From: Tetrahymena elliotti 4EA
Lineage: Eukaryota; Ciliophora; Oligohymenophorea; Hymenostomatida; Tetrahymenidae
Direction: 5' to 3'
Assembly: GCA_000231825.2 (NCBI GenBank)
Contig: JH720384.1
Coordinates: 1-64,000, forward strand
Length of the DNA: 64,000 nucleotides
Shown: positions 3,198 to 58,132 of the stretch, piece by piece
Position numbering within the stretch: the first letter of the stretch is position 1
Layout: each line of letters begins with the position of its first letter
Program-made: the position numbers and the translations under genes
The notes under the pieces: model-generated
What the model was told of the DNA's origin: nothing
What the model saw: the letters and a program-made list of their open reading frames with translations, nothing else
The model's database searches: none

Positions 3198-6100
3198 GCA
3201 AATTAAAAAGCATAAAAAGTGCCTAGATTGTTGACCATGAAAATAACGAACAAACAAATTGCAAAATTAAGATTAAAATATTTCGATAAAATTAATAATA
3301 ACTTATAAATCTAAATAATAATTCAAATAAATAAACTAAATTTACTTTTACTTTCACTATAAAATACATAAAAAATTAATAACTACATAACTATTCACTC
3401 CACTCACTCAATCACTATTCTTTAAATTGACACTTCTTGTCATAACTACAAACATACATAAAATCAACCATAAATACCTATACACACATTCTAACACTCA
3501 AACAAACAAATAAATAAATTTCCACACTCAAAAAAACTCTTACTGTTACTTTAAACTTATTAATTATTGTTATAAGCATGTGAAATAAGTCTAATTCTCC
3601 ATTTTAAACTGCAAACTAAGAAATTAATTAAATTATTAATTCATGTTTTATTGTTTTTTTTATAAAAATATATTTTTGTAAGCTTTAAATTTATAGTCTT
3701 ATTAACCAATTTTTCCATTCTATAAATTACGCAGGAGAACTTGAAAAAGCAAACAAATATTAAACACAAATAATATCAAAGTGGTATTTTTTTGTCAAAA
3801 TAATAAATAATTTCTTCATGGCTAAATTAGTGATCATAAATTAAAATGTAAATAATCAGTATTTTAATTAAAATGGTGTAACAGATATTTTTTGGTTGAA
3901 GTCAAAGTTCAATTTTTCTTTTATAAATTATTTGGTTGCTAGACAAAAAACTTAAATTGAATCAGAAAGCAACTTCAAATTAGGTTGATTTAAAAATTGA
4001 AGCAATGAAGAATACAACTTTGCTTTTTGATTATTATTTGGCAGAAATTATCATGAAATATGTCTGTTAAGAGTTATTTGGTTTGAATAAAAATTAACTT
4101 TTTTATCATGCATATTTTCTTTCAAAAATTAATTGAAATTTCAATTTGAATTTTTGCATTGAAAGGAGATGAATAATTTAGGTAGAGTAGATGAAGGAAT
4201 GAATTATTGATTATTAAGTAAATTTTAGGGATTTAAATAAAAATTAAAAGATTGAAATGTAATAATTAAAAGCTATTTATAGATAATTAGCATATTATAC
4301 TTAAATACATTTCTTATTGTAAATACACTTATCTGAGTGATTCTATTCAGAAAATCAATAATTGTAATTGGAGGCAGAAAATTTCATAGGCTAAATAAAT
4401 GATTAAAACTGTCAATTTCTAATCATTAAAACACAAATTAAGCCTACATTTTATTTTATTCAAATAGATATTTTATAAACAAACAAGCACATTTTAAATT
4501 TTTATTCTTCACATCAAAACAAAAATAAATTTGGCCAAGAAGATATAAAATATTATTTTTTAATATAATAATTATATTATTAGAACTATTAATTACACAG
4601 ATATAAAAGGCAAAATTTTATTTTTTTACTTAATAAAGATATTGGGGATAATACTATTTTGTGTTCGTGTTTGTGTTTATCCGTTCGTGTGTGTCTTTTA
4701 ATTTACTTTTTATAAAATACAACAGATTGTAAAAAATCATCCATAAATTTGCCTAGCGAGAGATATATCCCCAAATGAAATAGAAAAATGGATTGCCTCA
4801 TTCTTCTTTAATTTTATATTAGGACATAGTAACTAAAAGCCAGAAATACCAATCCAAAATTTTTGTAAAAAATATGCTTTTTTCATAGTATTTTGGACAT
4901 TGTTGTTTGCTTAAAGAGAAATATAAAGATAGTAATATTACAATTAGTACTGTAATAGTTATAAACTAGGTATTTTTTAGGAAGGACTCTTTCTATAAAT
5001 GTAACACCTTATAAGGGAGGATATTCTGATATTTTGCATAACGTATTTCAGTGTATAGAAATCCTATTTAAAAGGATTTCCTCTTCATGAATTTACTTAA
5101 CTTTGAGATAGCATTTAAAGAAAAAATTTGGTTATAACAAATAAATCAAATTTAGTTAGTTACCCTTAATTAATTTTTAGATATTTTTCATGTAAACTCA
5201 AATACTCGCTCACATTTATTTCTCTTTAAATCTGCAATTAAAAGTTAGTAAGCGAGTAAATAAAAACCGGATACAAAATATGTATTTTATAAGCTACAAG
5301 CAGGTCAAAAATTTTTTAAACTCTCTCAAAACGAATTTTCTGACAAATGGTGATAGAAAATACAATAGCTAACTAATCTCTCAATCCATTTCCTATTTTT
5401 TATACACTAGTACAGCCTGTAAAATTTTGAGTGATGTACTAGCCTAGTTTACTGTCCAATAATAATAATGAGAAAATAAAATCGTCTACTAATCCAAAGT
5501 AAGATTTTTTAAACAAAGTATAAAAGACATTAAGTCTACAGACAAGTATTTTGTTTGTCTCTTGATAGAAACTAAATTACGCACCCATTTAAAATAGAAA
5601 AATCCTATAATAGCTACTAAGAAATAAAGACTTTTTCATTTAATATTTTTGTTTAGCAAAGCAGATTAATAAAAAGATAGATATTGAATTTTAGAACAAA
5701 AAATCTGTATTATTTGATGAAAATTAAAAAAAACAAAATTTTTTAAACAAAAGTTATTTCTTTCTCTTTTCATTCATTTATTTAGTTAGTGTGTAATCTA
5801 ATCTTTTTCCTCATCATATTTAAATATTGTTAAATTAAAAGCTATTTGTGATTTGTATAATAATCTTAAAAAAATTCTTGCTTTTTTCTATTAAAAAGTG
5901 TTTCAGATAATTTTTAGAAAAATAATCAATCAAAGATAAGAGTTATATATATTGTTTGTTCTTTTTTGGGCTGTAGATTGCCTTATAATCTTTAGTAATA
6001 AAGAGATCTTCCTTTATATACAATTTATTTGAAGATTTTTGATTCTTTACTTAAACTACCTACCTACATACAAACAAGCAAATTTGTTTATTCTAGATTA

Positions 6101-8551: not shown

Positions 8552-11500
8552 TCATCTTTAGTAGGTATTTATATCATTTTGTTGACTATAATCGTCTTCT
8601 TCATCTTCATTCGGCTATATTACATTTATATTTTTTTACATATAAGAACCGCTTTGCTAGTTCTGGCTTCTTATGTTTGTTAGTTACCTTGTGTTTTGGT
8701 TTTAATGTTCAGCAAAAATATCATCATCTTCATCTTCATCATTCTACTGATTATTCAAATAGTTGCCACTTTTTTGCGATTACCCATCTCCTAGATTGTA
8801 ATCATCACCTTGAACCTTTTCACTCTTCTATTGGCTATCTTAAAGAGGAACTACTTGGTTCTTTTTAGCTGGTTCAGAAGCCTCGTAATCGTCGTCTTCT
8901 CCTTTTTTACTAGATTCTTGTTTACTACTTTCTTATTAGCTCATCCAATCTTCAGGATTAGCCTTTAAAGGAACGATATTGATGGGGTCAAAGTAAATGT
9001 CTTCCTACAGAACTGTCCATAAATATAAGCCAGAATAGGCAAAGATAAAGACAAAGGATAAAATTATAAAAATTATTGCCATAATTCTTTTTTGTTGGGA
9101 AGGGGAGTCGTCATTCATACAGTTTAAGCAAAGAATGATCATTACAATTAAAAATAATTCGCAAGCAATATCACGGCGCTAAATCAAATTAAAATGAAAA
9201 GGTCTTGTTATTAACAAAACAATTACATTTAAAAGTCTCACAGCTATGCAGAAAATAATTTAGTAAAACACATCTCCACTTAAGAAAACCAGCACAGCTG
9301 CATAAGCAATTTTTGTTAAGTAAGGATAAATTATATAATATTTTCCTCTTTTTAAATTGAATTTCAGTCCGTCAAACAAATGTAAATATTTCTCAAACCA
9401 GTCTGTTCTCTTGTGTAATTTTTGATAAAAAACATATTTCTTCATCAACACTCCTCCCATAAACAGCACTCCAAGAAATGATAAGATACAAAGGATGAAA
9501 TTTAATGCGGACAAGATCGTTGCAAATGATAATGATTGCAATTACAAGAATATCGAAATACATAAATAGTAGAAAATAAAGTCAAATAACCTGATATAGG
9601 CATCCCACTGCATTACTTCTTTTATTTTTTCTGTGACCTGAGTGACTTAGTCTATTTCAACAAACCTGTAAAGTAGCAAATTAATTGCTTGTAAAAGAGA
9701 TAGAATGATGAAACACAAAATTATCGTTCCCAAGATTGTATGAATGAAGCTGCTGTTTAATAACTACTTCTAAATGATCAAATTGTCCTTATCAGCAAAA
9801 TTTTTTAAGTCACTTGAAGACAACGGGATAGAGTCGAATATACTGTACATACCTCTCAAATTGTATACTAAGTCAGCCTGCTAAAAGAGTTAATAGCTAA
9901 AGACATCCAGTCTGATATTGAAGAACCTTTTAAACAGAAATAAATTTCAATTCAAACTCTTAAATTTAAATGACAAAATAAAAAAATGAATTTCCTTTCT
10001 TATTTTTTATGAATAAAACAAATGAAATATCTTGATAATTAGATAAAACTATTCTTTCAAATGTTTATTTTGATTTTTTAAAGTTATTTTTCTTTTAAAT
10101 AAACAAAAAATATTACCTCATCAAACCAATCACTTAAATAACTTCAACATATTTAAAAACTCTTCCTTAACCAAAGTTGTAAAGATAAACAAAAAGTGGT
10201 CCCAGCAAGACAAAAGAAAAAGAAATGAAAACCCATGAAACAGCTACAGCAGCATTATTTTCTTCGCTAGAGTAGTAAATGTAATAAGGTAAAGGAACAG
10301 TAAAAGGTGTAAATTGAGAAATGAGAGTGTAGTTGTAAATATCTTGGATGTTGTTTCTAAAAGACATTGAAAAATCAATATTTGCAATAAAATCTTAAAC
10401 GGTTTTTGTGTAGTTAAATTTAACCTTTATTGTTTATTCATCAATAAATTGCAGCGTGTAATTGTAGTATTTAGAAGACAGTCCTGTTATCTTGATGACT
10501 ACATCCTGTTGCGTGATGTTAACAGGAGGATTTTGTATTTTTCTGTCAAATTTTACAAAGATCACTGTATAATCGATGTTAGATTGGTAACCTGAGACTT
10601 TAGGAGGTCTTTTTTCATAACAAATAGAAGGACCTTCATTATTTTCTAAAATACAAGCATAGTTGTTTTCTATTTAGCAAGTAGCAGAACATCCATCTAA
10701 GTTCTCAGTATTTCCATCATCGCATTTCTCTGAAGATGGCTAAAAGTATCCATCTCCACAAACATTTGGCAAAGAAGAACAAGTCTTTCCATCAACCTTA
10801 TAACCTAGAGAAATAACGGATAAAAATTTCAATAAAAAAATAATAGAAATCGATAAAAATTAATAATAAAAATAATTTTATTTGTATATTATAAGCACAA
10901 AATACATTTAATGTGATTATATAAAAGTATTATTGTTTAAAAGAAGTATTCAGCTTGTTAATTATCAATTAAATAAAGCTCAATTTATTATTAGCTTATA
11001 TGTGGCTGTAATAACTTTAATCTCAATTTTAAACAAACTTTAAAATTTTAATTTATTGATGTGTTAAATGTTATCAAAATTCATTCATTTTTTAAGTAAA
11101 AAATTCATGTTCATTTAAATAAAACATTTTGAGATATTTTCGGATATTTAAAATTTCTTTTGAATATTTTTTGATTAAATTTAAATTACCAATTGCACAT
11201 TTTAAGCATTGACTTTGTTTATCATCACAAGAATAGCAATTAGGGTCTAAACCACATAATTTACAAGTCTAGGAGGTGGGATCAAGGAAATAGAGATCAG
11301 CACATCCTTAACAATCATTTGATTTGGTACATTTTGAGCATGGGAATGGACAACGAGTGCATTCGTTTCCTAATACAGGATTTAAGGTTGGATAAAAACC
11401 AGTAGGGCATTCTTAATAGCAAATACCTTCAGCTATATAATAGTTGTTTTGGCAAGAAAGACAAGATGATTTCTAACTATTTAGACACTTTTTACAGTTA

Positions 11501-14500
11501 GTGTCTGAGCAATTTAAGCAAGATTAAGTAATCTTATCTCTGTATTAACCATTAGTGCATTATTTGTCACAAGATGCAGTCACTGGATTCTTGTAGTGAT
11601 CTGGGAAACATAAAGTGCAATCTTTAATTGCTTTGCTGGTACATTACAAACAATTACTTGCGCATTAAAAGCAGCTTGATCTACCTCCTACTATTATCTA
11701 AGTACAACTGTATCCTATTTCTATTTTACATTCTGAGCTGCACCCATCTCCATTCTAATTTATTTCAAAAAATTTTTTCTATTAAGAAATTCAATAAAAA
11801 TAATTTTTTACATTCAGATTTTCATCATCACATTCCTCGTTAGTATCAATAACACCATTTCCACAAAGATTGGTGCAAACTGATTATGCCAAATTTAGAC
11901 CAGTGCAAGAGTAATTCAATTCAATTTTACAGTTTTAATCGCAACCATCTCCTGTTAAAATATTTCCATCATCACATTCTTCATTATACTATTTAATTCC
12001 ATCTCCACATATTGGTAAACCTAAAAAGTTTTTCAATAAAAGCAGTTAAAATTAAATGTTTTCAAATAAATGAATTTTATATTACAAACATCACTTGTAG
12101 TTGTAGAACCACCTTAGCATATAAACCCAGTTAATACAGCAGTACAACTATCATTGCAACCAGTAGGTTAACCACTTATCTTTGGCCCAGCATCACAAAC
12201 TTCATTAGGCTCTCTAATACCATCTGTGCATGGATTTGCTATACTAGAAATTTGAGTGCAAACAGAATGAGTAGTTGGTGAAGTATTAGTACAAAACCAA
12301 CCAGATTCTACTTAGCAAGAAGCATTGCAGCCATCTCCAGTAGCATTATTTCCATCATCACATTCTTCATTGCCATCAAGCTTTCCATTTGGGCACTTTA
12401 ATTTAATATTTTTAATTTTCAATAAAGTTTGTAAATAAACAAATATTTACAAGTGGTTAACATGTATCTGGAGAAGTACTTGAACCTCCTTAACAATAAT
12501 AACCAGAATCAACACTACAATTTGAGCATCCAGTAGTTTTACCATTATCGCATTATTCATTTGTATCTCTTCTATTATTTCCACAAAGAGATAAAAGTGT
12601 TGTACATGGTTATGCACTACAATCTTTTAATATTTAATTTAATTTATTTTTAAAAATTTTTCTTAAATTAAAAGAAAGAAAAATAAATCATATTATTTAA
12701 ATCTGAGGAAAATTACAAAATCCAATATCAACAAGGCAATTGGTACATCCATCATTTGGGATTGTGTTACCATCATCACATTCCTTATTTATTTTAATTA
12801 ATATTATTTATGATATTCCAAAATAGTAATTAAAAAATGTACTTCATTAAGATTAACTACACCATTTCCACACAAAGATACACAAACACTAGGATTAGTT
12901 CCTGTACATTAGTAGCCTGTATCAACAATACAATTAGAACATCCATCGCTATCTATTTAATTACCATCATCACACTATTCATCTTATTTGATATTGAAAA
13001 TAAAATAAATTAGATTAAAATTTTCAATTAATTTTTTTACTGGTTTAAACTTTTCCATCTCCACAAGCTATTATGCATTTACTAGGCATAGGAGTATTGG
13101 TGCAAATATAGCCTGGATCAACTTAGCAATTAGTACATCCATCATAATCTATAAAATTACTATCATCACATTACTCTGACCCATCTATTACGCCATTACC
13201 ACATAATTAACATAAACCGTTATTTGGATTAGCAGCTTAAGGAGAACATGAAGCTGCTGCTACGCAACTGGTTGCTTTCAAATAGTAATTTGTTGCACAA
13301 GCAACACAAGAATAAGTAGGAGTTCCAGAAATAACAGTACCAGTACAATAAGTACATGTTGAACTACATGTTGAGCAAGTTTTAACATCTTAGTTATTTA
13401 CACCAAATTAGGATGTATCACAAGCTTTTTATTAAAATAAATCATTAATTTAAAAGAAAATAAAAAAATTATTTACATGAATAACAAATTCCATATTGTT
13501 CATAATAACCTGCTGCACAGTTTAAGCATAAAATTGATGAATATTTAGCAAAGGCTATTTAGCAATTTGATATGCAACTAGGACTGTTAGAATATACTCC
13601 TAAGCCAGAATAAATCTTTAATTAAGTTAACTAAATATCCCCTGTATATGAGTTCAAAGTACTACCTATTGTAAATCCATTTAAAACACTTTCATCCCAA
13701 ACTGTACTTGTGTACAATTTTTGATAATTAGAAGTAGTTAAATCTCCATAATCTAACTTAAAAATGTAATAATTGTAATAAGGAACAGAATTTGTGTAGA
13801 AAGCCAAGCTAATTATAACTTGAAACCAAGTAGTTGAAGGAATAACCTTAGAATCAGTATAAACTTAATTATTAATCACAATTTTTATGTTACGAGCTTA
13901 GTTAGTTAGAACATTTAAAATATTGCTAGCTGTCTTCTTTGACAGCAAAATTACATCTTTTACACCATCCGTCAAATCTGCATCTGTATTTACTGTGAAC
14001 CCTGCAGGGTATTTTATCCAAAAAGATATTGTAACACCCTAATTATTATAAAATATTTGTTTATTATTTATTTAAATCCCAAAAGAATTCAAAATATTAG
14101 TTAAATATAAAATTGATTTCAATCTTTATTTAATTATTTTTAATTTATTTCAAATATGAGAAATAAAGGATTAAAAAATGTAATTTTACTCTAAAATTAA
14201 AAAATTCTTTCTCCTTCTTTAGAATTATTTTTATTTGGTTTAACTAAGGCAACTATTTTGTGCTTTATATCATAATTGTTTTAATAAATAATCCAAATAA
14301 TACATTCACAATTTTAAAAAATACTCCTTTTTTTTGTTCCTCAAAATAGTTTTTTTTTAATTAAATTATGCTTTACCAAATTTTCTAATTAAAATAAATG
14401 CTTTTTGTATTTTTTTGTGGAAGAAATTACTTTAATAAATATCTATTTCTAATAAAGTTAATTGTTTATTCTTCGTAAAAATCAAATATGTTCACTTTTC

Positions 14501-18645: not shown

Positions 18646-20066
18646 TTCATCATTTCATTTTTATTTTTGTTCTAAAAATAGTAAAACATAATAAAAGCTA
18701 TTTTTTTAATTTTAAGATAATTATTTAAAATTTATAAATACATTATCGTTTTAAGCATAAACAATTAAATGATTAAAGAAATTAAAGCTTTTAAGAGTCA
18801 ATGAAAGTGTTTTATTTTATCTTCATAGTTATAAATTAGATATTAATATTAAAGTTTTTAAAATTTAGTTTTAAAAAATAATAAAATTTGAGGAAATAAA
18901 TATTTCATTTATTTTGTATTTTATTCTCTAATAAATAAGTCATATTTTTTTCTTAAAAATAATATCTCAAATACAAAAAAGTTAAAAAATCTGTTTTGCA
19001 AAGTGCTTTTTTTGACTAACATTAATTCTAAGTACTATTTATTATCAATAAGTTTTGTAAAAACTCATTTATTTTTCTAAAAAATTATTTCATTTTTATA
19101 TTATCATAATTGTACATATAAGTTTATTTTCTTATCAACCAATATAAAAGAACCATAAAATATCTCAATAAAAAAGTAAGTAAAAAAGTAACTGCTTGTT
19201 ACATTTGTCACATTTTGTTCTTTTAATCTTTACCTTATGAACTTTATCAATTATTTCATAAATCATTATTAAAATTTTAATTGAAAGTAACATATAAGAT
19301 ACAAATGAATTATCAAATATTCAAAAAGTTTATTAAGATTCTAAATCTTTAAAAGAGAAAAATACCCAACAAACTTTTTAAAATTTTGTTTAGGGTAAAG
19401 AAAATGAATTTATTCATTTTTTATTTTTTTATTTATTTTCTGTAAATTATACTCACTTCTGATTGAAATAAAGAAAATATTATATTTTTTTTAAAATAAG
19501 TATTTTTATAAGATTGACTATATCAGTATTTATCTAAGGATTATGATATGATGATTAATTTATTTATCTGATAATTTAACAAAATTTATCTTTATTATAA
19601 AATTCAAATTTTTTAATTTATTTTGTCTTATTTTTATATTCAATTATGTAAAAAAATAAATAGGAAAGTTATAAAAATAGTAATGGTAAAACTTTAAAAT
19701 AAAAGTAACTCAAATATCGATTAATTTAATAAATAAAATTAACAAGATAAACTAACTTGCGATATATCCAGATTTTTCAAATGAAAAAATAATCAATTTT
19801 AATTTTATTAAAATAATTAAATTTAATAAATCACTTTCTCTGTTTTTATTTAAAAATTTGGAAATGTTTTACTCCTCTAGGTTTCATATTTTTAATTACC
19901 CTAATTTAATAATGAAAATATTTCCTAACTTATTTAAATAATTTTAAATTTTACTCTCTATGTTTAGATTATTAGTGAATATTTTGTTATTCCTTAAAAA
20001 CTTACCAACTATTTTAAATGTAAAATAATTATTTCTAAATAACAAAAAGCTTTTTTATAATTTTAC
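18646..20066. other. Spacer between convergent genes, with box continuation
   Basis: The first kilobase (18646-19800) holds only AT-rich sequence. From about 19830 onward the AG-NNN-GTAA boxes (minus strand) of the microexon array continue past the predicted stop triplet; see the separate entry at 19835-20008. Confidence 0.5.
19835..20008 (-). other. Splice-like boxes downstream of the predicted stop
   Basis: On the minus strand the pattern AG-triplet-GT continues after the TGA triplet at 20067-20069: TTG at 20006-20008 (TAG before, GTAAG after) and AGA at 19955-19957 (TAG before, GTAAAA after). Less regular sites follow at 19900 (one base, G), 19873-19876 and 19835-19837 (AAA, followed by GTGATT). 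They may be 3' UTR microexons, an alternative C-terminus in another phase, or remnants. Spacing (48-60 bases) matches the main array. Confidence 0.45.
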
Positions 20067-23000
20067 TCACTAATTTTTTAAATAATAATTTTCATCAATC
20101 CTTCATCAAATGATATGCAATTTATAAGCTTTACAATCTAATTCAGTGTTATAATGTTTTGATGATTTATATTATCATTCAAATAAAATTTTACTAACTA
20201 TTTTTATTATGGATGTAATTGAATTTATTCTTTTCAAAAATAGAATTTACTATCTATTTTCAAATGATATGAGAATATTTATGTATAAATAATTGTAAAG
20301 AATTAATGAATTTATTACGTGCATGCTATTTTAAATTTTTGAGAGTTGAACTTTATTATTTTTTCAAATTTTTTTAAAATCTTTACCAACTTTTTAAAAA
20401 CATTAGTTTAATATTTTTTTTATAGAAAGAATCATATCTACTTCCTATTTTAAATTAATGTTATGAATAATATATTAATATTCCATTTACCAATCATTAA
20501 AAAATTACGGTTTATATTTATCATTAAAATAAATTTAGTTTTTTTAGATAAACCTAAATTAATATTTTAATTACTCCCTATTTTAAAATTTTATTCAGTT
20601 CATCATCTCCAAAAGTTAAAGAATTTAAAATATAATTCTGACCATTCGCTTCTATGAAATCTAAATAAATCATTAATTATTTTTCAGTTGAAAATTTGAA
20701 ATAATTTTACTCGCTATTTTGATTTAAATAAAATAATTTTTATGTTGAATTTTGAAAGAATATTACCTATTTATATTTTTTTTAAAATTATTATTATTCT
20801 AAATAAATAAAAATATTACTCTTTGCTAATTTTAGTTCGATATTCAATTATTATTATTATTAATTTCCAATTATCTAAAAATATTACTAGTCGCTATTTT
20901 AGTAAATGAATTATTTCTTAATTTTTCTTCTGATAAATGCTTCAAAATAATACATGCTATTTTAATTTCAAAGAAAATAAATAATTTTGAGTTTAAAGAA
21001 TTTAAAATATAAAAATCTTTTTAAAATGTTAGATTTTTTATCTTTTTAATTGAATTATTTATTTACAAGCTGTTTTTATCAGAAAATATATTAGCAATCT
21101 ATATCAGCGTTTATCTTAAAATGATTTAAGAATATAAATTACTTCCTTTTTTATTTTAAAAAGAATTAACAATTAAAGAATATTTTAACTTAAAATAAAT
21201 TTTACTTGCTAATTTAAATTTCAAAATATTTGTAAATTATTTTATTTGCCAAAACTCATTAAAAAAATGAATGAAGAATGTTTAAGTACCCACTATTTAG
21301 ATTAAACAATTTTTAATTATTTTTTTTCAGCAATATTTTTAAAATTACTTTTTTTCAAATAAAAAGAAAAAAAGAGTGAGATTGATTTTTATTATCAAAA
21401 AAATTTTTAATTTACAATCTATTGCAAAATTTATGAAAGATTTAGAATATTGAAATACTCTTCATTAGTAGTTTACAATCTATTTTTGATAATAAATTAA
21501 TCCATTTTCTTATTTCCAAAATTTTACGAGCTTTTTTATTATGTGATTCATTAAGTAATTAACTAAGCAATTTAAATGCTAAGATTTACACTCTAATAAT
21601 AATTTAGAAATATATCTATCATATTCATCAAGTTAAAAAGATAATTTGTTGAAAATTTTACCTTCTGTTTTAAAATTAAATAAGTTAGAAAAATAAATAA
21701 ACATAAAGAACAATTTTACCCACTTTAAAGTCAATTATTTTAATTTAGTTTAACAATTAATTAATGAATATTAGTTTACATTCTAATAAAAAAATAATTT
21801 TTCTTAGACGTATTTTTCATATTTCCAAAAATTACCTATTGCTATGTAAAATTGATTAATATCATTCTAAGCACTCAATTCTTTTTACCTATTTTGAAAT
21901 ATTAAATTTATTTTATTTTTTTATTGAATCTGTATTGATTTTTCAATATTTCAAATTTAAAATCAGATGATCTTAAATATTTAAAGGATTTATACATTTT
22001 ATTATCACTTACTTGTTAAAACTTCTTAGAAAAAGTATAATCTATTTTATTTCTAATATTTAAATTGATTAAAATTTTATTTGGAGACAAACACAATAAA
22101 TAGTAAATCAGTATAAAAAAATTAAATTGTTTATATAATTTACCAGTAATTATAATCATTTTATTGAAATAATCCAAATAAAAAAAAATACTACCTTATT
22201 TTATTCAGAGACATTTAATTTAACAAAAATTATCCCAGCAAGTATGGTAATTTCAAATTATTTCTTCCTTTGAATTAAAATAATATATAAAATAAATAAA
22301 GGATTAATTTTTGATATTTCACCTATTTAAATAGTCTTTATTTTTCTATTTATAAGATATATTTCAAAATTCCCTAATTTTGTAGAAATATTAGCGAAAA
22401 TAAAATTTTTTTCACCAAATTATTTTAAATTAAAATTAAATTAAATTTAAAATAAAAGAAATTTTAAGTATTATGCTAAAAAAAATGATCAATTTCAATT
22501 TAACATCAAAGATTAAGTATTTTTGATATTTAAATAATTTTATGGAATTTTCAAATAATTACCTGATTTTTTAAGTTTACATGCATTTCTCATCATTGAT
22601 AATAATTTATATTTACCAACTTCAAAATTAAAGTAGTTAAAGTAATTTTAAATAAAAAGTTTTTTAGATTTATTAATAATTTTGTCTTTTTTTTAAAAAA
22701 AATATGAATAATATTTTACTTTGTACTGAAAAATTTATTTATTTGAGGTTTGATGATTCTTTGAATAAAATTTACAATCTAATTAATTTAATACAGTAAA
22801 CAATTAATCATAATCTATGAATTAATGAAATGAGTAATAAGATTACTTCCTATAATCAAACTTATCTCTAAAATCTTCTATTATTTTTCTTAAATATTTA
22901 CATGCTTTTTCCATTAAAAAAAATTATTTTAAGCTCTGCTCAACTAAAAAAAAATTAAATTTACTTTCTATTTATTTTGGAAAGATTTTTGAATTTAGAA

Positions 23001-25417
23001 GCAATTTATTTCAGGTATTTAGAATTATTTATTACTTCCTATTTTATTTAATGTTTTTATTTCATAATATTCTATTTATTGGAAATAAATTACTTGCTAT
23101 TAAAAGAATCAAATTAATTCTAAAAATTCAATTAATCTTTCAAAAATGCTACTCTGCTCTTTACAAATTAAATTATTAAAACTATTCATTTAAGATTTAA
23201 AAATATTTACGTTAAATCCCTAAAAATTACAGGATAAATGGGTAAGAAAAAATCTGTTTTTAGTAAAAGCATCAAAAATGTACTTCCTATAATTGTATTT
23301 TTAAATTTATCTATTATTTATTAATTCTTTATTTTTTAAAATATTACTGACTATTTAAATTTATATCATATTTATATCTTTAATTAGAAAATACTAAATG
23401 AGTTACTAACTATTATCAAAATAAAAATATTTTATTTTAAAAAATTAAATGAAATGAAATTTACAAGCTAAATTTGTTTTAAATTTTAATGATTCTGATT
23501 AATTGTATCTAAGTTACTGTCTATTTAATTATTTATTTAAATCAAGAATTTATTTATCAAAATAATATATTAAATAAACTTTTTTAATTATTAAAAACTT
23601 AAAAAATTATTACCCTCTATGAAGAATTATTGTTTTTAAGCGTAAGTTAAGTTAAAATGACTTAAATTATTTACATGCTTTTTAACACATTTTATTCATT
23701 AATTAAAGAAAGAAACAATCTAAAGCTTACTATCTATTTTCCATATTTATCATCAGGAATCTCAACATAATTATTGAAAAAAATACTCCCTAAGCATTAT
23801 TAATAATTAAAAAATTTAATACTCCTAAATATCATTAAAAAATTAAAGATTACTTTCTAGTTATATTTTATTATATATTTGAAGTGTTTGCTCATATTCA
23901 TAAAAAACGGATAAATCAACTACTTTCTATCATTGTTTAATAAATTTTTGAAAATTATTTTCTGAAATCAAATTATAAAAAAAGTTGAAATTTTACTTGC
24001 TTCATTAATTTAAGATTTATTAGTCAAATTAATAATCAAATTTGTTCATATTTATTACTCACTGTTTTATTTAATATATTGAATATGTATTCATCAAGCC
24101 TAAATAATTAATTATTACTAACTATTATGTTAATTAGAAAAAATTACTTAATTAAATAATTTAAAATTTATCTTTTACAGGCTATTTTTATTTTGAAAAT
24201 AAATTCAACATTTATTTTTAAATCCATATTTCTTCAAGAATATTAATTAACTACTAACTTTTTTAATATAAAAATAAATTAATTATTCATCTTAGTTTGT
24301 AAAGGGTGTAGTGTATTTATTGAAATAAAATGAAATAGTTTTGAGTATATTAGAAGAATTATTATAATGTTATTTAGATTTTTATAGCTTATTGATTTAT
24401 AATTTTTAAAATATTACAAATTTTGATATACTTACTGGTCATGACCAAATTTAAAAAATGTAAGTTTGAACTTGAGATTGTTTTATTTAATTCTATTATC
24501 TACTTTTATTGTCTATATTTTTTTTAATTTTTGAATTTTACTTACTTCTACTTAGCTTATCTGAGCTTTTCGTAAATTAAATTTTATGTTTTCTTATTAT
24601 ATTGCAATTAATTATACTTAGTATTTGAAAAAGGAATATTAAATTGAAGAGTAATTAATAATTTTTGCTTATTATATTATTTTTGTTGAAAATAAATAAT
24701 CAAAATATATTTTAATATTTTATAATAATAATTCTCAATATTTTAACTTTGTATTCATAAATACGTTAATCATCTTTCAATCTAACTTTCAAGAATATTA
24801 ATTAATTACTATCTATTTTTAATATGAAAATAAATTTAGTGTGTGCCTTTCTTTCTAAAATCCTTCAAGAATATTAATTAATTACTAGCTATTTTTAATA
24901 TGAAATTAAATTATTTTCTAAAAATTGTATAAAATAAAAAATTACACTCTGCTTGATAATAAAAATTTAATAGAACCAACTGATTAGGTAAATATTATAG
25001 AAATAAAATAAACAGAATTTCTATATTTTACAAACTATTTAGATTTTATTTGTTGATTTAATCTACTTGATTAATAAGAAAAATGGAATTTTTACTATCT
25101 TTAAATAAAATAAATAATTATTTAAAATAATAATTTAAAAAAAATAAATTTACCCTTTGTAGAATATTTCTCTTTTTGGCTCAGTTTTTCATTTCGAGGA
25201 GAAATATGTGGTTTTATTTAGAAGTTGAAAGCAAAGCAAAAGCCAAATATACCTTAAATATGAATAAAAAGATAAATAATATTTTGTATCAAAAGCAATT
25301 ATTTGTCAAATAATAACAATATTTAAATATTATCAATTGTGATTTTAACTTTATTTATTCGATATTCCTAAAAAAACAATAAAACCATATTATATAAATT
25401 ACAGTTTTTTAAAACAT
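20067..25417 (-). CDS. Putative microexon gene: dozens of 3-base exons
   Basis: Minus strand. Exon 1 is 25417-25403 (ATG TTT TAA AAA ACT) and exon 2 is 25367-25154; exon 2 leaves one base over. Then about 60 sites of the form (T/A/C)AG|exon|GTAA follow at about 50-70 base spacing. Most exons are 3 bases, some 6 or 9, and three change phase: GA (23823), AAATGCAT (22581-22588) and CATGCAC (20319-20325). Between the boxes the sequence is unrelated AT-rich filler, while the triplets vary and are about one-third G+C. Joined in this phase, no TGA occurs until the TGA triplet at 20067. The 3' half uses well-behaved codons (reading GRVSLFGKNF, then IDYKDESEWE, then NCMHILI). The two other phases there give rare CGA/CTC codons or an early stop. 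Total about 170 residues, family unknown. Region 22022-22562 and sites near 24540 are not resolved, and the exon 1-2 assignment is tentative. The alternative is a 5 kb intron with recursive splice points. Confidence 0.6.
24234..24912. repeat. Three dispersed copies of one intron-microexon unit
   Basis: A unit of about 48 bases, beginning TCAAGAATATTAATTAA and running through the splice box into TTTTTAATAT, occurs at about 24234, 24789 and 24865. The flanks are nearly identical, yet the triplet inside the box differs: TTA, ATA and CTA on the minus strand. This is the only place in the array where whole units are recognisably homologous, and it suggests that the array can grow by copying an intron-exon-intron unit. 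Confidence 0.8.
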
Positions 25418-25951: not shown

Positions 25952-28900
25952 ATGAATTGGCTTAAAATATAGGTTGCTGGTAGGAGCTTAAGGGAATTTT
26001 TGCATATTACAATAGCTTTTTTCTTTATGATGCAAGGATTGCTAGATATCGTTACTGATATTGTATATTATCGAACTAGAAATTTCGAAAGCTATTTTGT
26101 TAAGAAGGTTCATCTATCATTTTTGATAATTTCTCCAATAATTTAATCTGTTTTAACTTTAATATTCTTAATGAAAAGAAAATCATCTATGAAAATGAGC
26201 TTACTTCAAAGTATTTATTGCAGTCTATGGTCTATGTTTCTAAACCAACTGAATATATTAGGATTTATCCTTCCATATATATTATATTCGAAATTTTAAA
26301 TTATTTTTAACAAAGAAATTATGAAGAATAATTATCTAAAGGAATCGAAATTGTAGGAGTAAAAATTAAGACTCTGGATGAATTTGTAGCCTTCGTTTGT
26401 TGACACTTTCTTCTATGATGACAACTAAATATTCGAATAAAATATTTGCTTTTTAGTTTAGGCTTTGCTATAAAGTGCTCCATAACTAATAATTCAGCTA
26501 ATAAATAATAATATGAATGATGAGTGGAATTGGTTTAATATAATAAGTCTGCTACTAAGCTTAATATCTTTAGTTAGAACTGTTGGAATTATTTATGTTA
26601 TAATTGATAGATTTTTTAGGTAGATCACATACCTCTCATAGTATTATGATAAGGATAAAAAGTTTGCTATAAACAAATAACTAGTAGTTGACACTCTTTA
26701 GTTGTCTAAAAATTTATAAAAAGTTAGGAATCTTCAAATAGTAGAAGATTTATTTTTATATTTTTAAAAGCATGAATATCCCTTAACAAAAGATGTCATA
26801 TAAATGGGATTAAGTTTCTTGCAAATGCATAAGCTTAGAAGACTTACTTTAGATTTTAGATTTATTCTTGATAAAAAGTGCATCAATTCATTTAAGCAAT
26901 TATAAAAAATAATACCTTAGCTTAAGAATTTAGAAGTTCTTTATATTAAGTGTGATTTCGAATATGACATCGAGTATATCGATGGAAGAAATTATCGTGA
27001 AATTGAAAAAAAAAAGAGAAAACTTAGTCTAAGGTAGTTTATTTTTAGAGTAAATAATAAAGTAATATTATTAAAAAATTCTATTTATCTAGTCGAAAAA
27101 TTGAAAGAGAAGACTAAAATCGCGAAAAAGAGTTAGATGAATAAAAGTTTGAAATTAAAATTCCGTAAGATAATTTATTAAATTATTTTAATTTTCTATT
27201 TTTAAATTATTCTTCAAAATATTTTAATGGCTAGTGTTTATTTCAAATAATAATACTAATAATACTGATATTTGTAATAAAGTTACTATCCAAAAAGTGT
27301 TTATTTGACTATTATTTCTTAATATTTTCTATTTTTAAATTATTCTTCAAAATATTTTAATGGCTAGTGTTTATTTCAAATAATAATACTAATAATACTG
27401 ATATTTGTAATAAAGTTACTATCCAAAAAGTGTTTATTTGACTATTATTTCTTAATATTACAAGCCAACTAAAATACAAGATATATTTTTCAGAAAAATC
27501 TGTATAAAAATCCTTCCTTAAAACAATTAAATAAATTCATTTTATTTATTTAAAATTGTTTTTAATAAAAAGTTCTTTAATTTCTCACTCAAAAATATAA
27601 GAGGGATAAGACTTACTTTCTAGTTTAAATCAATAAGATTCTTAAATATAAAAAGATTAGCATGTCGTTATTAGTCTTAACGATCCATCTAATAATCTGG
27701 CTACTCCACTTTTTTAGGTTAGAAAGAGCTCTATGCCATCAACTTTAGGTCCTAATTTTAATTTTCCATAAAGAAAATCTCTTTATGTTTAAGATTTGAT
27801 AAAGGTAACTTAGTTTTAAGAAGTCTCTTAGCATAGTATAAATGTTAAAGGAGATGGAGAAATTCAACATACTCAAACTGGTAGATAGGAGGAAAGCATG
27901 TGGTTTTAAAGCAGTAGAAGGAACGATACTTAAAGTCCTTTTATAGGAGGTAGTCCTAATTAAAATGGAAGTCCATAATCAGATTGGAAAATACCAGAAA
28001 ATCTAAGTGGAGTAGAAGAAATTTAAATAGAAGAAGAAGAAGATTTGGAAGATGATAAAAGATATGATTTTGAAATTGATATTAAGTCAGGAATGTTTAT
28101 TAAATATAAAATATAAAAGTGTAATTTTAAACCACTCTAAGTGTGTTCTGAAATGATTCATAAAAGTGACATCTACTTGAATCTGTTTGTAAAAAAGGGC
28201 AAAATCAATATGGAATTTAAGCTGACTTAGCATCAGAATGAAGAGGAGAAAAAATAGAAATATGATATTGAAATTGACGAATCTATTGAATTTGATAATA
28301 TTAATTTTGTCAATATTATATCTTCTGACATCAAGTAAGCTATCTAAGAATGCCCAATAAGTTAAAGAAAAACACTATTTATGCAAATTATTTATAACAA
28401 AAACATATTGACAGCGAATATGAAAGAAGCAATATCAAAATCAATTCCTTTCCCTAAAAACAGTGACTTGTATGTATTTTAATATGAAAAACTTAAGCCA
28501 GTAAACAAGTAAACAATCTAATTTAAAGATGCAATAGAAACAAAAGATAAATTTTTGAGATTTATTCTTATTCCTAGAGATAAAGATTAAAAGTAAAAGC
28601 AAAGAGTTTATATTTGGAATAAAATTAAAAGTACAGAAATTGGTTTTATCTAAGGAGTAGGAAATATAGGCCAAACTTACAAATAAAAGATCTTTACATT
28701 TGATGAAGACTAAGTAAATAATACTATTTAAGTTGATAAACATTCTCTTAAACTCCTCTCTCTAAAATCATTCATCCAAAAAAGCAAGCTAAAGCAAGTA
28801 GTCCTCTTTTGGAGGTATATTTTTTATATTTGAAAATCAATTAATTATAATCTATCTGACTTAAAAAAGTGGAAAGATGGAAAGTGCAGACCAAATAAAA

Positions 28901-43000: not shown

Positions 43001-46000
43001 TCATTTATTTTCCTCAGTTTTTAATCCTAATGTGTTTTATTAGGTGAATTTTTTTTCAAGAGTAACATATTATTCAATTGATGCTTCCATAAACATCTTT
43101 TCGATTTGTTCTTTATTTTTACCAGTAGTGTCTTTCATGTTGATCATCATGTAAATCACAACAAAGAAAGTTACTATTGGGAAAACTATCATAGTTACTT
43201 CTGCTCCTGTAGCATCCAACAAGTAAGGTAAGAATTAGACTGTTGATAAACTAGAAAGCCAATAAATGCAACCAAAGAAACCAACTCCAACTGGGGGTAA
43301 AATTTCACTAGGATAAACTAATTAATTAAAGAAAAATAATTTTATTAATTTGAATAAATTTAATAAATTACTCCAATGAACTGGTGCAACTGATGTGGCA
43401 AAAACAAATTTGTAAAGCAAAATCAAATATTTTTGAAGAGGTTTGTAATCACTCCATCCAGTGATACTAAAGGCAACTAGAGTAATCATACATCCTATGA
43501 GTCCATGGATATAAAGATTTTTTCTTCCAATTTTTTCAATTAGAAATATGGCAAACACAGGACCAAGAATATCACCAATAGGCATAATTGCTGTGAATAA
43601 CTAAGCAGTGCTTGCACCTTAAGATTCTGAGATAATATTATAAGAATAAACGTTAATAGCATTACATCCAACATAACCAAAACCAATAGTGAGCATGACT
43701 ACTACGGATATTCTGCTCCTGTACTTTGGTCCAAAAAGTTATTTCCATCCTATGTTTTAATTACTAGCTTCTTTAGAAAAATTATTTAAATCAGTGAATT
43801 CATCATGGACTACTTCTTCTGTAAAGACTCTATTTAGTACAGCTTTTGTTTTTGGTTCATTTTTATCATGGAGATAAAGATAAGGTGCTGTCTCATCTCT
43901 GAAAAATATTAAGAAGACAAAAATAGATAATAGGCAAAATGCGATAGGCAATCCATACATTAATCTCCAGTAACTATTAGTAGCACTATCTTTTGGGTCG
44001 CTTGGTAATCCATATCCAAGCAAGAAAGCAAGTAGTATACCAAAACCAAAGTATTAAGAGTATATAATTCCACTGATACCTTTGTATTACTTACATGCTA
44101 TTTCTATTGAATAAAGAGGTCCAATTGATGACCATCCACCAAAGCTTAACCCAACTATTAAACGTCCTATTATTTTATAAAAAATTAATTAAATTAATTT
44201 GAAGCATTAAAAACTTAAAATAAATTATATTTTTATTAAAATATATCAATAAATTTACTACTTAATTGAAAAATAAAAATATTTCTTTTATTTAATAATA
44301 TGCTGTAATGCAAATCCTCATTAATAATTAACTTATTAAATATTTCAAAAAATAATCTATGTTTTGGAATTTTTTGAAGACTATGTTTTTAATTTTATCA
44401 AAAAAAGTGTAAAGGGAATCCCCGCTTAAAATTTATTTCAGAATTATCCAAAATAATCACATAAATCTTTTGGTATTTATTTAATATTAAATTTATTACG
44501 TATTATTGATGATTAAATACTATCAATATCTAATATTTTGGATATTTTTATACTTACCTTGAGCTAAAACAATTCTTGATTATTTTTTCTTTGAAATGAT
44601 ATTTGAATTATTTGTTTTTTGCTGTGTTGTAAGAAGAAAATCATTTTATTTTTAATATTTTCCATATTTCTACTTGAAATTTGTTATCATTTTAATGTAA
44701 AATAAACATTTAATGGTGTTGTTTATTAAAATAATAATTATTAAATTAGTAATATATAATAAGCTATTTTAGTAAATACTATTTTTCAATTTTTGAGGGG
44801 GTTTGTCAAAAAAGAGTAAAAGAAATTTAAAACTTTAAGATTTTACCTAATAACAAAGCTCCTGTATTAGCAATAAGAGTAATGGCATTTCCTACTAAGG
44901 AGATGATAAAGAGAATTATCAGCATTCTTCTACGTCCAAAGCGTGCTGCCATTCCACCAGCAAAAAGTGCAACGATGGCTGCAACTGCTTAAGGAAGAGA
45001 GTTGATTAAGGAATACTGCAAGGTTTTTTCATCATCAGTCCAATCATATATGTAATTCATGTGGTCAGACAATGTATTAAACAAACCCATGTTATATGCT
45101 AATAAAAAATCAGTAAAAGCAGCATGATTAACCATAAACCAGAACATTAACTTGTTTTTCAAAAGATTAGCTGCAAAAGGCTTAGATGTTTCATCTAATT
45201 TGTTAGTTGTTTCACCATTAGCTGTAACTATTTCGTTATGATGAGTTGCACGATTTTCATCCTTATTAAATGCTTTAAGTTCATTAATGTTTTAGTTTGT
45301 TGTTATCTAAACACTATTTATCTCACTTTAATTTTTTATTTTTTTGCTATTTTGCTAGCTATCATGAGATTGGTCCATGTGAGCATTCTTAATTTTTTAA
45401 AACAAATAGTCTTTAGATTTAAAAAAGTTGATGAAAAGAAAAATGTTTTACATGTTCATTTCTAGCACCACCTAACTCAATTTAAAAGACCTAATCTATG
45501 TTGAATAAAATAAATAAATAAATGCTAATGAATATTTAATTCAGATTTAACATATTAAACACATTTTTATGGTATTGTAATAAATTTTAATTTCATCTTA
45601 AGTAATAGTTCTAGATAAATAAGTCAAAAAAGTTGTGGATAGAACTAAAATTTCCTAAGAAGTAAAGGGAGTTTTTTGAAATTAGTCAGCTTCAAATATG
45701 AAATATAATCATATTAAACAAGAGCATGTGTATAGCTCGTTGTGAGTTATTAAAATAATAAAGGAGAAATATATGTGCATATTGTTTATTTGTTCTACTG
45801 AGCGTAGGTAAGCAAATAAGCAAGCAAATATAACTAAAAATTAGAATTAAATTAAAAAAATACCAAAAATTAAAGCTTAACTTTAAAGTACCATATGAAT
45901 ACTAACATAAAAAATGAATGATTACCTGCTTGAATATTTTCTGTTTTGACTTCTTTATTAGAACTTTTACGCTAACTGTTTATACGAGGCTAATTATTGT

Positions 46001-57700: not shown

Positions 57701-58132
57701 TTTTAGTGGCCTTCTAAATCTTCAAATATTAAAAATTCTTCAAGCAGTGTTTCAAAAGGCTAACCTAAAATCTTAATAGATAAAGAAACCATACCTCAAG
57801 TTTCAGATTAAGTGATAAATGGTATTTCCAAAATGCTCAATTAAACTAACACACAAACTATGAACAACCCATTTTTAATGCTATATCCTAATGCTAATAA
57901 CTCTTTAGAAATGTCATTAACATCATAAATGAATGCTAATATACAAGAAGCTCAATTAACATAAGATTAATCAAACACAAAAGGAAATAGTAAACCTCAA
58001 AGTGAGTACAACAACAGTGAACTGTGTTCCCCAGAAATAAAGTATTCTTAACGACAAACTCCCACAGATAATAATATGATAAACTCGTATGAAGATAACA
58101 AACAAAATCCCTTTTTAATATAAAATGAATGA
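51752..58132 (+). CDS. Giant cysteine-rich (furin-like) membrane protein, 2014 aa
   Basis: Exons 51752-52728, 52787-52905, 52945-53373, 53550-54220, 54284-58132; 2015 codons in phase with TGA at 58130-58132. The last exon alone is 3849 bases. Residues 1-20 (MYYFYLILILLLFQDIFGYE) are a signal peptide. Residues ~20-490 are a large ectodomain of unknown fold. Residues ~490-1490 hold dozens of CxxC...C furin-like/growth-factor-receptor-type repeats (e.g. CNICV and CxxCxxGY-type units), with a run of six Gly codons around 54118-54135. Residues ~1490-1870 contain about nine hydrophobic helices, and 1873-2014 is a Ser/Asn/Gln-rich cytosolic tail. The order (signal, Cys repeats, multipass domain, tail) parallels the protein at 8552-15847, but exon structure and repeat types differ. 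Probably a plasma- or ciliary-membrane protein; ligand unknown. Confidence 0.93.

What the first reader, a model, noticed from the sequence alone, without database searches (positions are those of the whole stretch)
20067..25417. A gene apparently split into about 60 exons, most of them 3 bases long
On the minus strand, 19.9-25.1 kb contains box after box of the form TAG-NNN-GTAA (plus strand TTAC-NNN-CTA). Only the splice-like flanks are conserved; the triplets vary and the 45-75 bases between boxes are unrelated AT filler. That is what an array of short introns around one-codon exons would look like, and not what a degenerate tandem repeat looks like. Clear sites (minus order, plus coordinates): 25096 ATA, 25032 TTT, 24946 AGT, 24886 CTA, 24810 ATA, 24179 CCT, 24119 TTA, 24059 TGA, 23997 CAA, 23854 AAA, 23787 GGA, 23731 ATA, 23675 CAT, 23614 AGG, 23518 ACA, 23465 CTT, 23407 TTA, 23348 TCA, 23284 GAA, 23094 CAA, 23036 GAA, 22965 AAA, 22902 CAT, 22847 GAA, 22776 ATT, 22617 TTG, 21780 AAT, 21720 TGG, 21662 AAG, 21590 AGT, 21528 CTC, 21477 ATT, 21416 ATT, 21290 TGG, 21206 CAA, 21143 GAA, 21067 CTT, 20954 CAT, 20711 CGA, 20575 GGA, 20442 GAA, 20387 TTG, 20251 ATA, 20195 TTA, 20135 ATT. 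Exons not of length 3 are 6 (20820, 20888, 22720, 23153), 9 (20643, 23211), 7 (20319) and 8 (22581). Joined, they read in one open frame. Triplets are about one-third G+C by my hand count, against about 15% in the sampled intron filler.
Basis: partly seen in the sequence, partly recalled or inferred. Interest (0 to 1): 0.97.

Follow-up and report, generated by a model that had tools for sequence, protein, structure and literature searches.

The report
Protein tail encoded codon by codon
In a Tetrahymena-like ciliate, a 5-kb stretch carries about 58 splice-flanked pieces, most of them one codon (3 bases) long; they are predicted to be spliced into a protein tail that some related genes in the same genome share, which would make it the most finely chopped gene design I know of.

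Summary
In detail: on the minus strand AG-NNN-GTAA occurs 44 times against 1.24 in dinucleotide shuffles. It is not one odd gene. Genome-wide, three boxes in a row occur 383 times, against 6 for the reversed pattern and 4 for a 4-base version. Splice-signal chains without exon-length preference in 14 array loci give 511 of 549 short exons as multiples of 3, 405 exactly 3. One family, this window included, reads open with introns after the second codon base; six of its eight tested arrays end in a split TGA. The window's joined peptide beats all 500 exon-order shuffles against three of five paralogs. Several arrays form the tail of protein kinases; others, in phase 0, follow other genes. Between two recent copies the mini-exons differ at 19% of sites, the introns at 4%; two older pairs do not show this. 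No protein with the clearest paralog's tail was found, and literature listings showed no such arrays. RNA was not available, so splicing is inferred. The window's own copy may be partly decayed: two long gaps, two odd donors, no kinase seen.

The parts
19955..25098 (-). whole array: 58 mini-exons (51 of 3 nt, five of 6, two of 9) separated by introns of 48-130 nt, except two gaps of 552 and 775 nt
   Evidence: table (the 9-nt exon there is listed two bases off; correct 20643-20651)
25154..25252 (-). candidate last ordinary exon upstream of the array (99 nt, ends ..TCTACAAAGG|GTAAAT); its frame into the array is unresolved
   Evidence: gene-model Viterbi; sequence
24810..25098 (-). first block: ATA 25096, TTT 25032, AGT 24946, CTA 24886, ATA 24810
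24258..24809 (-). 552-nt gap without clear boxes (long intron, insert or weak exons)
22617..24257 (-). second block of 26 mini-exons, phase 2 peptide about YYLYDKKKEYIGHFYQKDLTADKKNMKFTN; includes 9-nt 23211-23219 and 6-nt 23153-23158, 22720-22725
21842..22616 (-). 775-nt gap; paralogs L049 and L010 encode a few more residues here; an AG|GTAA site lies at 22562
19955..21841 (-). third block of 27 mini-exons, phase 2 peptide about NRIGRVSLFGKNFIDYKDESEWENCIYQFD then stop
20766..20767 (-). zero-length exon candidate (TAG|GTAA) that divides a 106-nt intron into two of 53 nt
   Evidence: sequence; a zero-length site is conserved between paralogs L009 (6878) and L010 (5760)
20643..20651 (-). 9-nt exon AAGCGAATG with an unusual donor GTCAGA
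   Evidence: assigned partly by the reading frame of the family
20319..20325 (-). CAT(GCAC): read as CAT with donor GCACGT (GC-AG) to keep the family frame; a 7-nt exon would shift it
19955..20008 (-). predicted stop codon TGA split over two mini-exons (TTG 20006-20008 and AGA 19955-19957), as in L009, L010, L016

Best explanation
The array is most likely the 3' part of a protein-coding gene whose C-terminal tail of about 65 residues is cut by introns at nearly every codon, and its mini-exons are predicted to be joined by ordinary splicing. Shown by sequence: AG acceptors (mostly TAG) and GTA donors (mostly GTAA) flank 3-, 6- and 9-base units at roughly 50-70 base spacing, like ordinary introns of related genes, and the same layout with a similar peptide recurs in paralogs. 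Inferred: because a 3-base exon is too short for exon definition, the introns are removed by intron definition, one after another (probably 5' to 3', co-transcriptionally), each step joining one more codon and placing the next donor beside the growing exon; zero-base sites (AG|GTAA) that split overlong introns would act as pure stepping stones. In the kinase family the joined codons, in phase 2, form a tail ending in a TGA split between two mini-exons. The tail is inferred to be a fast-changing binding or recognition domain, attached through a coiled coil to a kinase in family A and to other proteins in family B.
For: Box excess 44 against 1.24. Genome-wide three-box arrays 383 against 6 reversed and 4 for 4-base boxes; strict form 121 against 0. 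Splice-signal-only chains in 14 of the 18 array loci in hand: 511 of 549 exons multiples of 3, 405 of length 3, no such bias in reversed sequence. Stops by phase in the same 14 loci: family A (8 loci) 17/18/5, four of the five phase-2 stops terminal and the fifth from a box the chain skipped in L016; family B (6 loci) 0/10/4. A gene model with no exon-length preference gives L016 as one 95-exon gene, 75 exons of 3 bases, from kinase to stop (Pkinase E=1.2e-34); the model forbids in-frame stops. The window peptide in phase 2 scores 91, 61 and 60 against L010, L009, L049, above all 500 shuffles of its exon order. Downstream of kinase hits, two of four places fetched together held full arrays (L048, L049). 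12 of 26 listed array loci lie within 8 kb downstream of a kinase match on the same strand. Recent copies L048/L049: exons 46/240 differ, introns 163/4187, p=2e-17; 47 observed against 12 expected after base stratification.
Against: No RNA evidence was obtainable. No Pfam or PDB match to the tail, none found among annotated proteins and no unsplit copy found in the genome, the last two being weak negatives. The match of the window peptide to L016 and L048 is weak (82 and 25 of 500 shuffles reach it), and phase 1 also scores above all or all but one shuffle against L009 and L010. In cruder chains L018 had one TGA in its phase 0, and L020 three in phase 0 and none in the others, so L020 fits no assignment made here. 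Synonymous change in the L048/L049 exons is also raised (pS 0.246), and the excess of nonsynonymous codons is similar in all three phases (28, 28, 26). The acceleration is strong in one of three pairs only (L009/L010 odds ratio 1.2; L013/L015 exons slower than introns). I chose two window exons (CAT, AAGCGAATG) partly by the family's frame. Of seven stretches fetched downstream of kinase hits, five have no strong array (L045, L046, L047, L050, L051).
Confidence: 0.9

Rival explanations
1. Stepping-stone reading: the array is one long intron removed by recursive splicing, the triplets being mere by-products of ratchet sites and carrying no protein information.
For: A zero-base AG|GTAA site is conserved between L009 and L010 and another sits midway in a 106-nt window intron.
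Against: Units of 0 bases are rare (7 of 549) against 405 of 3 bases. The peptide is shared with paralogs best in phase 2, internal stops are absent from that phase and the array itself carries the predicted stop.
Confidence: 0.05
2. The family is real but the window copy is a decaying gene fragment: the array remains while the kinase part is gone.
Against: The 58 units in order keep one open phase up to a terminal stop at the family position, which neutral decay would in time break; some family members may lack a kinase.
Confidence: 0.3
3. TAGNNNGTAA is a DNA or RNA binding-site array (regulatory or chromatin element), not exons.
For: Only the flanks are constant; the triplets vary.
Against: A fixed motif would not give 6- and 9-base versions, a reading phase without internal stops, or an association with the 3' side of kinase genes.
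Confidence: 0.02
4. The raised divergence of mini-exons between L048 and L049 reflects targeted mutation or codon-cassette exchange rather than selection on the protein.
For: Synonymous changes are also raised above the intron level, and 11 of 80 triplets carry two or three changes while the flanks are nearly identical.
Against: 26 of 31 changed codons are nonsynonymous in phase 2, though the other phases look alike in this, and core residues (IGRVSL, YEL-F-stop) are kept.
Confidence: 0.2

Closest known systems
Schistosoma micro-exon genes (MEGs)
   Same: Very short exons interspersed with introns; described range 3-81 bp (PMC10526429, start of abstract seen in the listings). That they are multiples of 3 is recalled.
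   Different: There introns are long (up to 5 kbp) and products are secreted (same abstract); here dozens of exons are exactly one codon long, introns are about 60 nt, and several parent genes are kinases.
Tetrahymena LRR genes with arrays of 90-bp exons in phase 2 (PMC6564038, passages seen)
   Same: Same genus, exon arrays of fixed length, uniform intron phase (2, as in family A), rapid evolution.
   Different: Exon length 90 against 3; LRR repeat units alike at the nucleotide level in many of those genes, while most introns here look unrelated to one another; family B is in phase 0.
Recursive splicing through zero-nucleotide exons (recalled from the fly and vertebrate literature, no call)
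   Same: AG|GT sites and stepwise removal.
   Different: Here most steps would leave one codon in the mRNA, and the steps are about 60 nt.
Plant and animal microexons (recalled, no call)
   Same: Exons of a few bases can be spliced.
   Different: As recalled, those are isolated exons flanked by normal ones; the L016 model has up to 37 one-codon exons in a row.

Membership tests
Spliceosomal micro-exon gene | Exons of a few bases flanked by canonical splice sites | tested here: met
   (sequence signals; not transcripts)
Spliceosomal micro-exon gene | Exon lengths multiples of 3 (symmetric) | tested here: met
   511 of 549 in 14 loci
Spliceosomal micro-exon gene | Mini-exons present in mature mRNA | not testable with these tools
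   no RNA data
Schistosoma-type MEG | Long introns between short exons | tested here: not met
   window introns 48-130 nt but for two gaps of 552 and 775; mean 60.6 over 361 gaps, counted only between 38 and 90 nt
Schistosoma-type MEG | Secreted product with signal peptide | not tested
   no signal-peptide tool was run
[quoted passage not shown]
   exons mostly of 3 bp; no LRR family among the matches of the tail peptides
[quoted passage not shown]
   family A phase 2, family B phase 0
Protein kinase superfamily (family A parents, not the window copy) | Pkinase domain above the curated cut-off | tested here: met
   L016 120.4 bits against 31.7; 32 Tetrahymena homologs
Recursive-splice intron | Zero-length AG|GT sites with nothing left in the mRNA | tested here: not met
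   7 of 549 units of length 0, 405 of length 3

The most novel reading that the evidence does not exclude
A new kind of gene design: a whole protein domain written one codon per exon, in dozens of genes, so that every residue sits on its own cassette with about 60 bases of intron on either side. The introns would let single codons be exchanged or mutated independently among paralogs, making a hypervariable recognition tail on kinases and other proteins, and the spliceosome would read it out codon by codon.
Probability: 0.35. Interest if true: 0.98.

Novelty: new variant of a known kind. Interest (0 to 1): 0.95.

Why it matters
Exons this short cannot be recognised by exon definition, and here 75 of them in one gene model, up to 37 in a row, would have to be joined accurately, step by step, for the gene to work. 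It offers a natural test bed for how small an exon can be, for the order of intron removal, and for why evolution would cut a domain at each codon. It also suggests that gene annotation misses whole domains: T. thermophila kinase proteins P0002, P0006 and P0009 agree with L016 up to a few residues before its array begins and then continue into tails unlike the L016 tail, and no protein with the L016 tail was found in the protein search (five candidates, none at E<=10).

Tried and rejected
Pooled triplets in phase 0 first looked non-coding (TGA not depleted; codon-usage score negative); this was resolved when loci were split by phase. First gene-model runs had a PWM offset error (fixed) and over-spliced flanking sequence; only array parts and conserved kinase exons are used. 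Even the L016 model skips part of the kinase's C-terminal lobe that T. thermophila homologs have. Plain dN/dS was uninformative (pooled pN/pS 1.12, 0.68 and 0.66 in phases 0, 1, 2). An unsplit copy of the L016 tail was not found, but the search scored no candidates. The unsplit kinase copies at C4 and C32 run into other sequence and gave no clear tail. No Pfam or PDB match for the tail. A minor cluster of AG-NNN-GTAA sites at 4.7-5.8 kb on the plus strand of the window has no regular spacing and looks like background. Structure prediction was not attempted, because spliced peptides are not letter-for-letter translations of a locus. The chain tests were run on 14 of the 18 array loci in hand; L012, L014, L017 and L020 were left out. 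Literature: of ten searches, eight looked for very short exons or gene structure in Tetrahymena or ciliates, in open-licence PMC papers only; 28, 71, 88 and 89 list 15-25 of 67-2,335 papers, so absence is not proved. Searches were aimed at known papers. Seen: PMC3274533 (one passage), PMC6564038 (12 passages), PMC5014332 (term search without hits), PMC10526429 (start of abstract in listing only).
Full report
OBSERVATION. The minus strand of 19.9-25.1 kb carries box after box AG-NNN-GTAA. I counted 44, against a mean of 1.24 (maximum 6) in 1000 dinucleotide shuffles of the same region; the stricter TAGNNNGTAA gives 30 against 0.44. Other spacings are at 0-6, with k=0, 1, 6 and 9 mildly raised, partly through overlap with k=3 boxes. 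The plus strand and the other 58 kb of the window show no peak of this size. I add the 6-base CAATAG at 21836 and five triplets, among them two (20006 TTG, 19955 AGA) that carry the predicted stop.

NOT ALONE. The window lies in an assembly of 90 Mb in 134 contigs. The genome is Tetrahymena-like: long frames are open only if TAA and TAG are read as glutamine (the 1592-aa frame at 53.4-58.1 kb has 106 such codons), and the closest kinase proteins are from T. thermophila at 73-75% identity over 60% of the query, so it is probably another species of the genus; no name was given. Three boxes in a row occur 383 times in the assembly, against 6 for the same pattern read backwards and 4 when the middle is 4 bases instead of 3. 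A strict version gives 121 against 0; the 100 of 121 places that were listed fall into 26 separate loci (clustered by eye within 15 kb; the listing stops before this window's contig). I fetched 16 stretches picked from the first hits; 15 of the 16 have more k=3 boxes on one strand than the other spacings, L012 weakly, and L011 is flank. Seven further stretches lie downstream of kinase hits.

LENGTHS. In 14 of the 18 array loci in hand (L012, L014, L017 and L020 left out) I let a dynamic programme choose the best chain of short exons from donor and acceptor scores and intron length alone, with a flat prior on exon length 0-30 and no knowledge of stops. Of 549 exons chosen, 511 are multiples of three: 405 of 3 bases, 60 of 6, 20 of 9. 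The reversed sequences give shorter, lower-scoring chains with at most one 3-base exon each. The site matrices were trained on TAG-NNN-GTA boxes, but length itself was not rewarded. Window introns run from 48 to 130 nt outside the two gaps. Twelve introns between kinase exons of four related loci are 48-70 nt long; 8 of the 12 begin with GTAA and all end in AG; these were placed by the same matrices, so their likeness is partly built in.

PHASE. Taking each triplet as a codon gives TGA stops in the window and in several loci, which at first looked like evidence against coding. Sorting loci by family resolves this. In family A (window, L009, L010, L013, L015, L016, L048, L049) TGA counts in phases 0/1/2 are 17/18/5 over 471 codons; four of the five phase-2 cases are the last codon of an array (window, L009, L010, L016), and the fifth arises where the chain skipped one box in L016 (GTG), which the fuller model includes. 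L048 and L049 also end in a phase-2 stop when their shared boxes are read; for L013 and L015 no end was reached. In family B (L018, L019, L021-L024) the counts are 0/10/4 over 239 codons, that is phase 0. In cruder chains L018 had one phase-0 stop and L020 (not assigned) had three in phase 0 and none in 1 or 2. In L009 and L010, tandem paralogs, the phase-2 reading has exactly one stop, at the same final position in both.

WHOLE GENES. A gene model without exon-length preference gives L016 as a single 95-exon gene, 75 exons being 3 bases long and 37 of them in a row, running from a protein kinase domain (Pfam Pkinase, E=1.2e-34) through a coiled-coil-like stretch into the array and to a stop inside it. 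The model forbids in-frame stops, so its openness is not independent evidence, and it skips part of the kinase's C-terminal lobe present in T. thermophila homologs. L010, L012 and L014 also have the kinase exons. A search for this kinase in the genome gave 164 matches. Of four places whose downstream DNA I then fetched together, two held a full array (L048, 48 boxes; L049, 51 boxes), while L047 and L050 had 4 and 6 boxes; L051 (3 boxes) and the 2.7-kb stretches L045 and L046 had none. Of the 26 listed array loci, 12 have a kinase match within 8 kb upstream on the same strand (both listings capped). Family B is mixed: by eye L018, L019 and L023 start with paired cysteines and coiled-coil-like sequence, L021 has a zf-TRAF match (E=1.9e-5, just below the curated cut-off), L022 an acidic stretch, L024 is unclear. 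In L018 and L019 the exons shrink towards the array: 111, 12, 9, 3, 3 ... and 168, 69, 12, 9, 3 ....

THE WINDOW'S PEPTIDE. Joined in phase 2, the window's exons read YLVQYYLYDKKKEYIGHFYQKDLTADKKNMKFTNCNRIGRVSLFGKNFIDYKDESEWENCIYQFD-stop. Local alignment to the phase-2 peptides of L010, L009 and L049 scores 91, 61 and 60, above every one of 500 shuffles of the window's exon order. In phase 1, L009 and L010 also score above all or all but one shuffle (58 and 60); in phase 0 the best case is reached by 38 of 500 shuffles (L010). Against L048 and L016 the phase-2 match is weak (25 and 82 of 500 shuffles reach it). The exon lists were typed from the models, leaving out uncertain pieces. At the DNA level the only match above 90 bits between the window and loci L009-L024 is 121 bp of L016; L048 and L049 were not compared that way. 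Two window exons were assigned partly by the family's frame: CAT at 20323 (needing a GC-AG donor) and AAGCGAATG at 20643 (donor GTCAGA); the table has the latter two bases off. The window copy also has two gaps (552 and 775 nt), no kinase among the listed matches, and an unresolved junction with the exon upstream. I therefore hold the architecture as well established for the family and leave open whether this copy is intact.

EVOLUTION. L048 and L049 are recent copies: their introns differ at 163 of 4187 sites, but their mini-exons at 46 of 240 (p=2e-17; 47 of 240 in the pairwise alignment). The AG and GTA were required in both copies, so their identity is by construction, but the bases just outside them differ at only about 2%. 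Stratified by base, 47 exon changes are seen where intron rates predict 12. In phase 2, 26 changed codons are nonsynonymous and 5 synonymous; the other phases give 28 and 7, 28 and 4, so this ratio does not itself pick the phase. Such change limited to the 3-base units is hard to explain unless they are used as exons. The older pair L009/L010 shows little excess (54 against 47-48), and in L013/L015 exons differ less than introns (0.18 against 0.28), so the acceleration is not general. Because synonymous change in L048/L049 is also raised (pS 0.246), I cannot separate selection on the protein from exon-targeted mutation or exchange.

MECHANISM. Shown: the signals, their spacing, the phases, the peptide shared with paralogs, the stop at the array's end. 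Inferred: splicing itself; intron definition; stepwise removal. A conserved zero-length site (TAG|GTAA) splits one intron of L009 and L010 at the same place, and a like site cuts a 106-nt window intron into 53 and 53. Such sites would leave nothing in the mRNA and look like stepping stones that keep introns near their usual length, which fits stepwise removal; they are few (7 of 549 units). The function of the tail is unknown by homology (no Pfam or PDB match, no protein found); a variable binding domain on a kinase is my best guess.

KNOWN OR NEW. The closest printed things I saw are Schistosoma micro-exon genes (exons 3-81 bp, long introns; start of abstract only) and the 90-bp, phase-2 exon arrays of Tetrahymena LRR genes (PMC6564038, passages). 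In what I saw, neither has runs of one-codon exons. Among 12 of the 32 homologs that I read, T. thermophila P0002, P0006 and P0009 match L016 up to EIKxQEKKDExP and then continue into tails unlike the L016 tail; P0011 departs slightly earlier, and its tail shares a short piece with P0009. This is expected if annotation ran into unrecognised arrays; I could not read their DNA.

Noticed in passing
window 27191-27459: A perfect tandem duplication of a 133-bp unit (2.0 copies, 100% matches) about 2 kb upstream of the array.
   Followed up: no
L051 (C40:368674-374673): The kinase copy at C40:367 kb is at most about 1% different from the one at C40:350 kb over about 1 kb, yet the 6 kb downstream hold no mini-exon array, so arrays may be gained or lost between recent copies.
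   Followed up: partly
L018 about 3305-3620, L019 about 3640-4110: Exon lengths taper from ordinary to one codon (111, 12, 9, 3 ... and 168, 69, 12, 9, 3 ...) at the start of family B arrays.
   Followed up: partly
L014 3900-4850 and L015 1270-2090: Array stretches made of similar repeated units (roughly 70 or 140 bp), unlike most introns elsewhere (offset blast matches; unit spacing).
   Followed up: no
L020: An array whose triplets give TGA only in phase 0 (3, 0, 0), unlike family B; family and phase not settled.
   Followed up: no
proteins P0002, P0006, P0009, P0011: Annotated T. thermophila kinases leave the L016 alignment near where its array begins, probably mis-annotated array starts.
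   Followed up: partly
window 53354-58132 (+), 43001-44245 (-), 8552-13277 (-), 61337-62968 (-): Ordinary neighbours: a 1592-aa frame with a weak Furin-like match, a sugar transporter, DUF4215 repeats, and a RING-finger protein.
   Followed up: no
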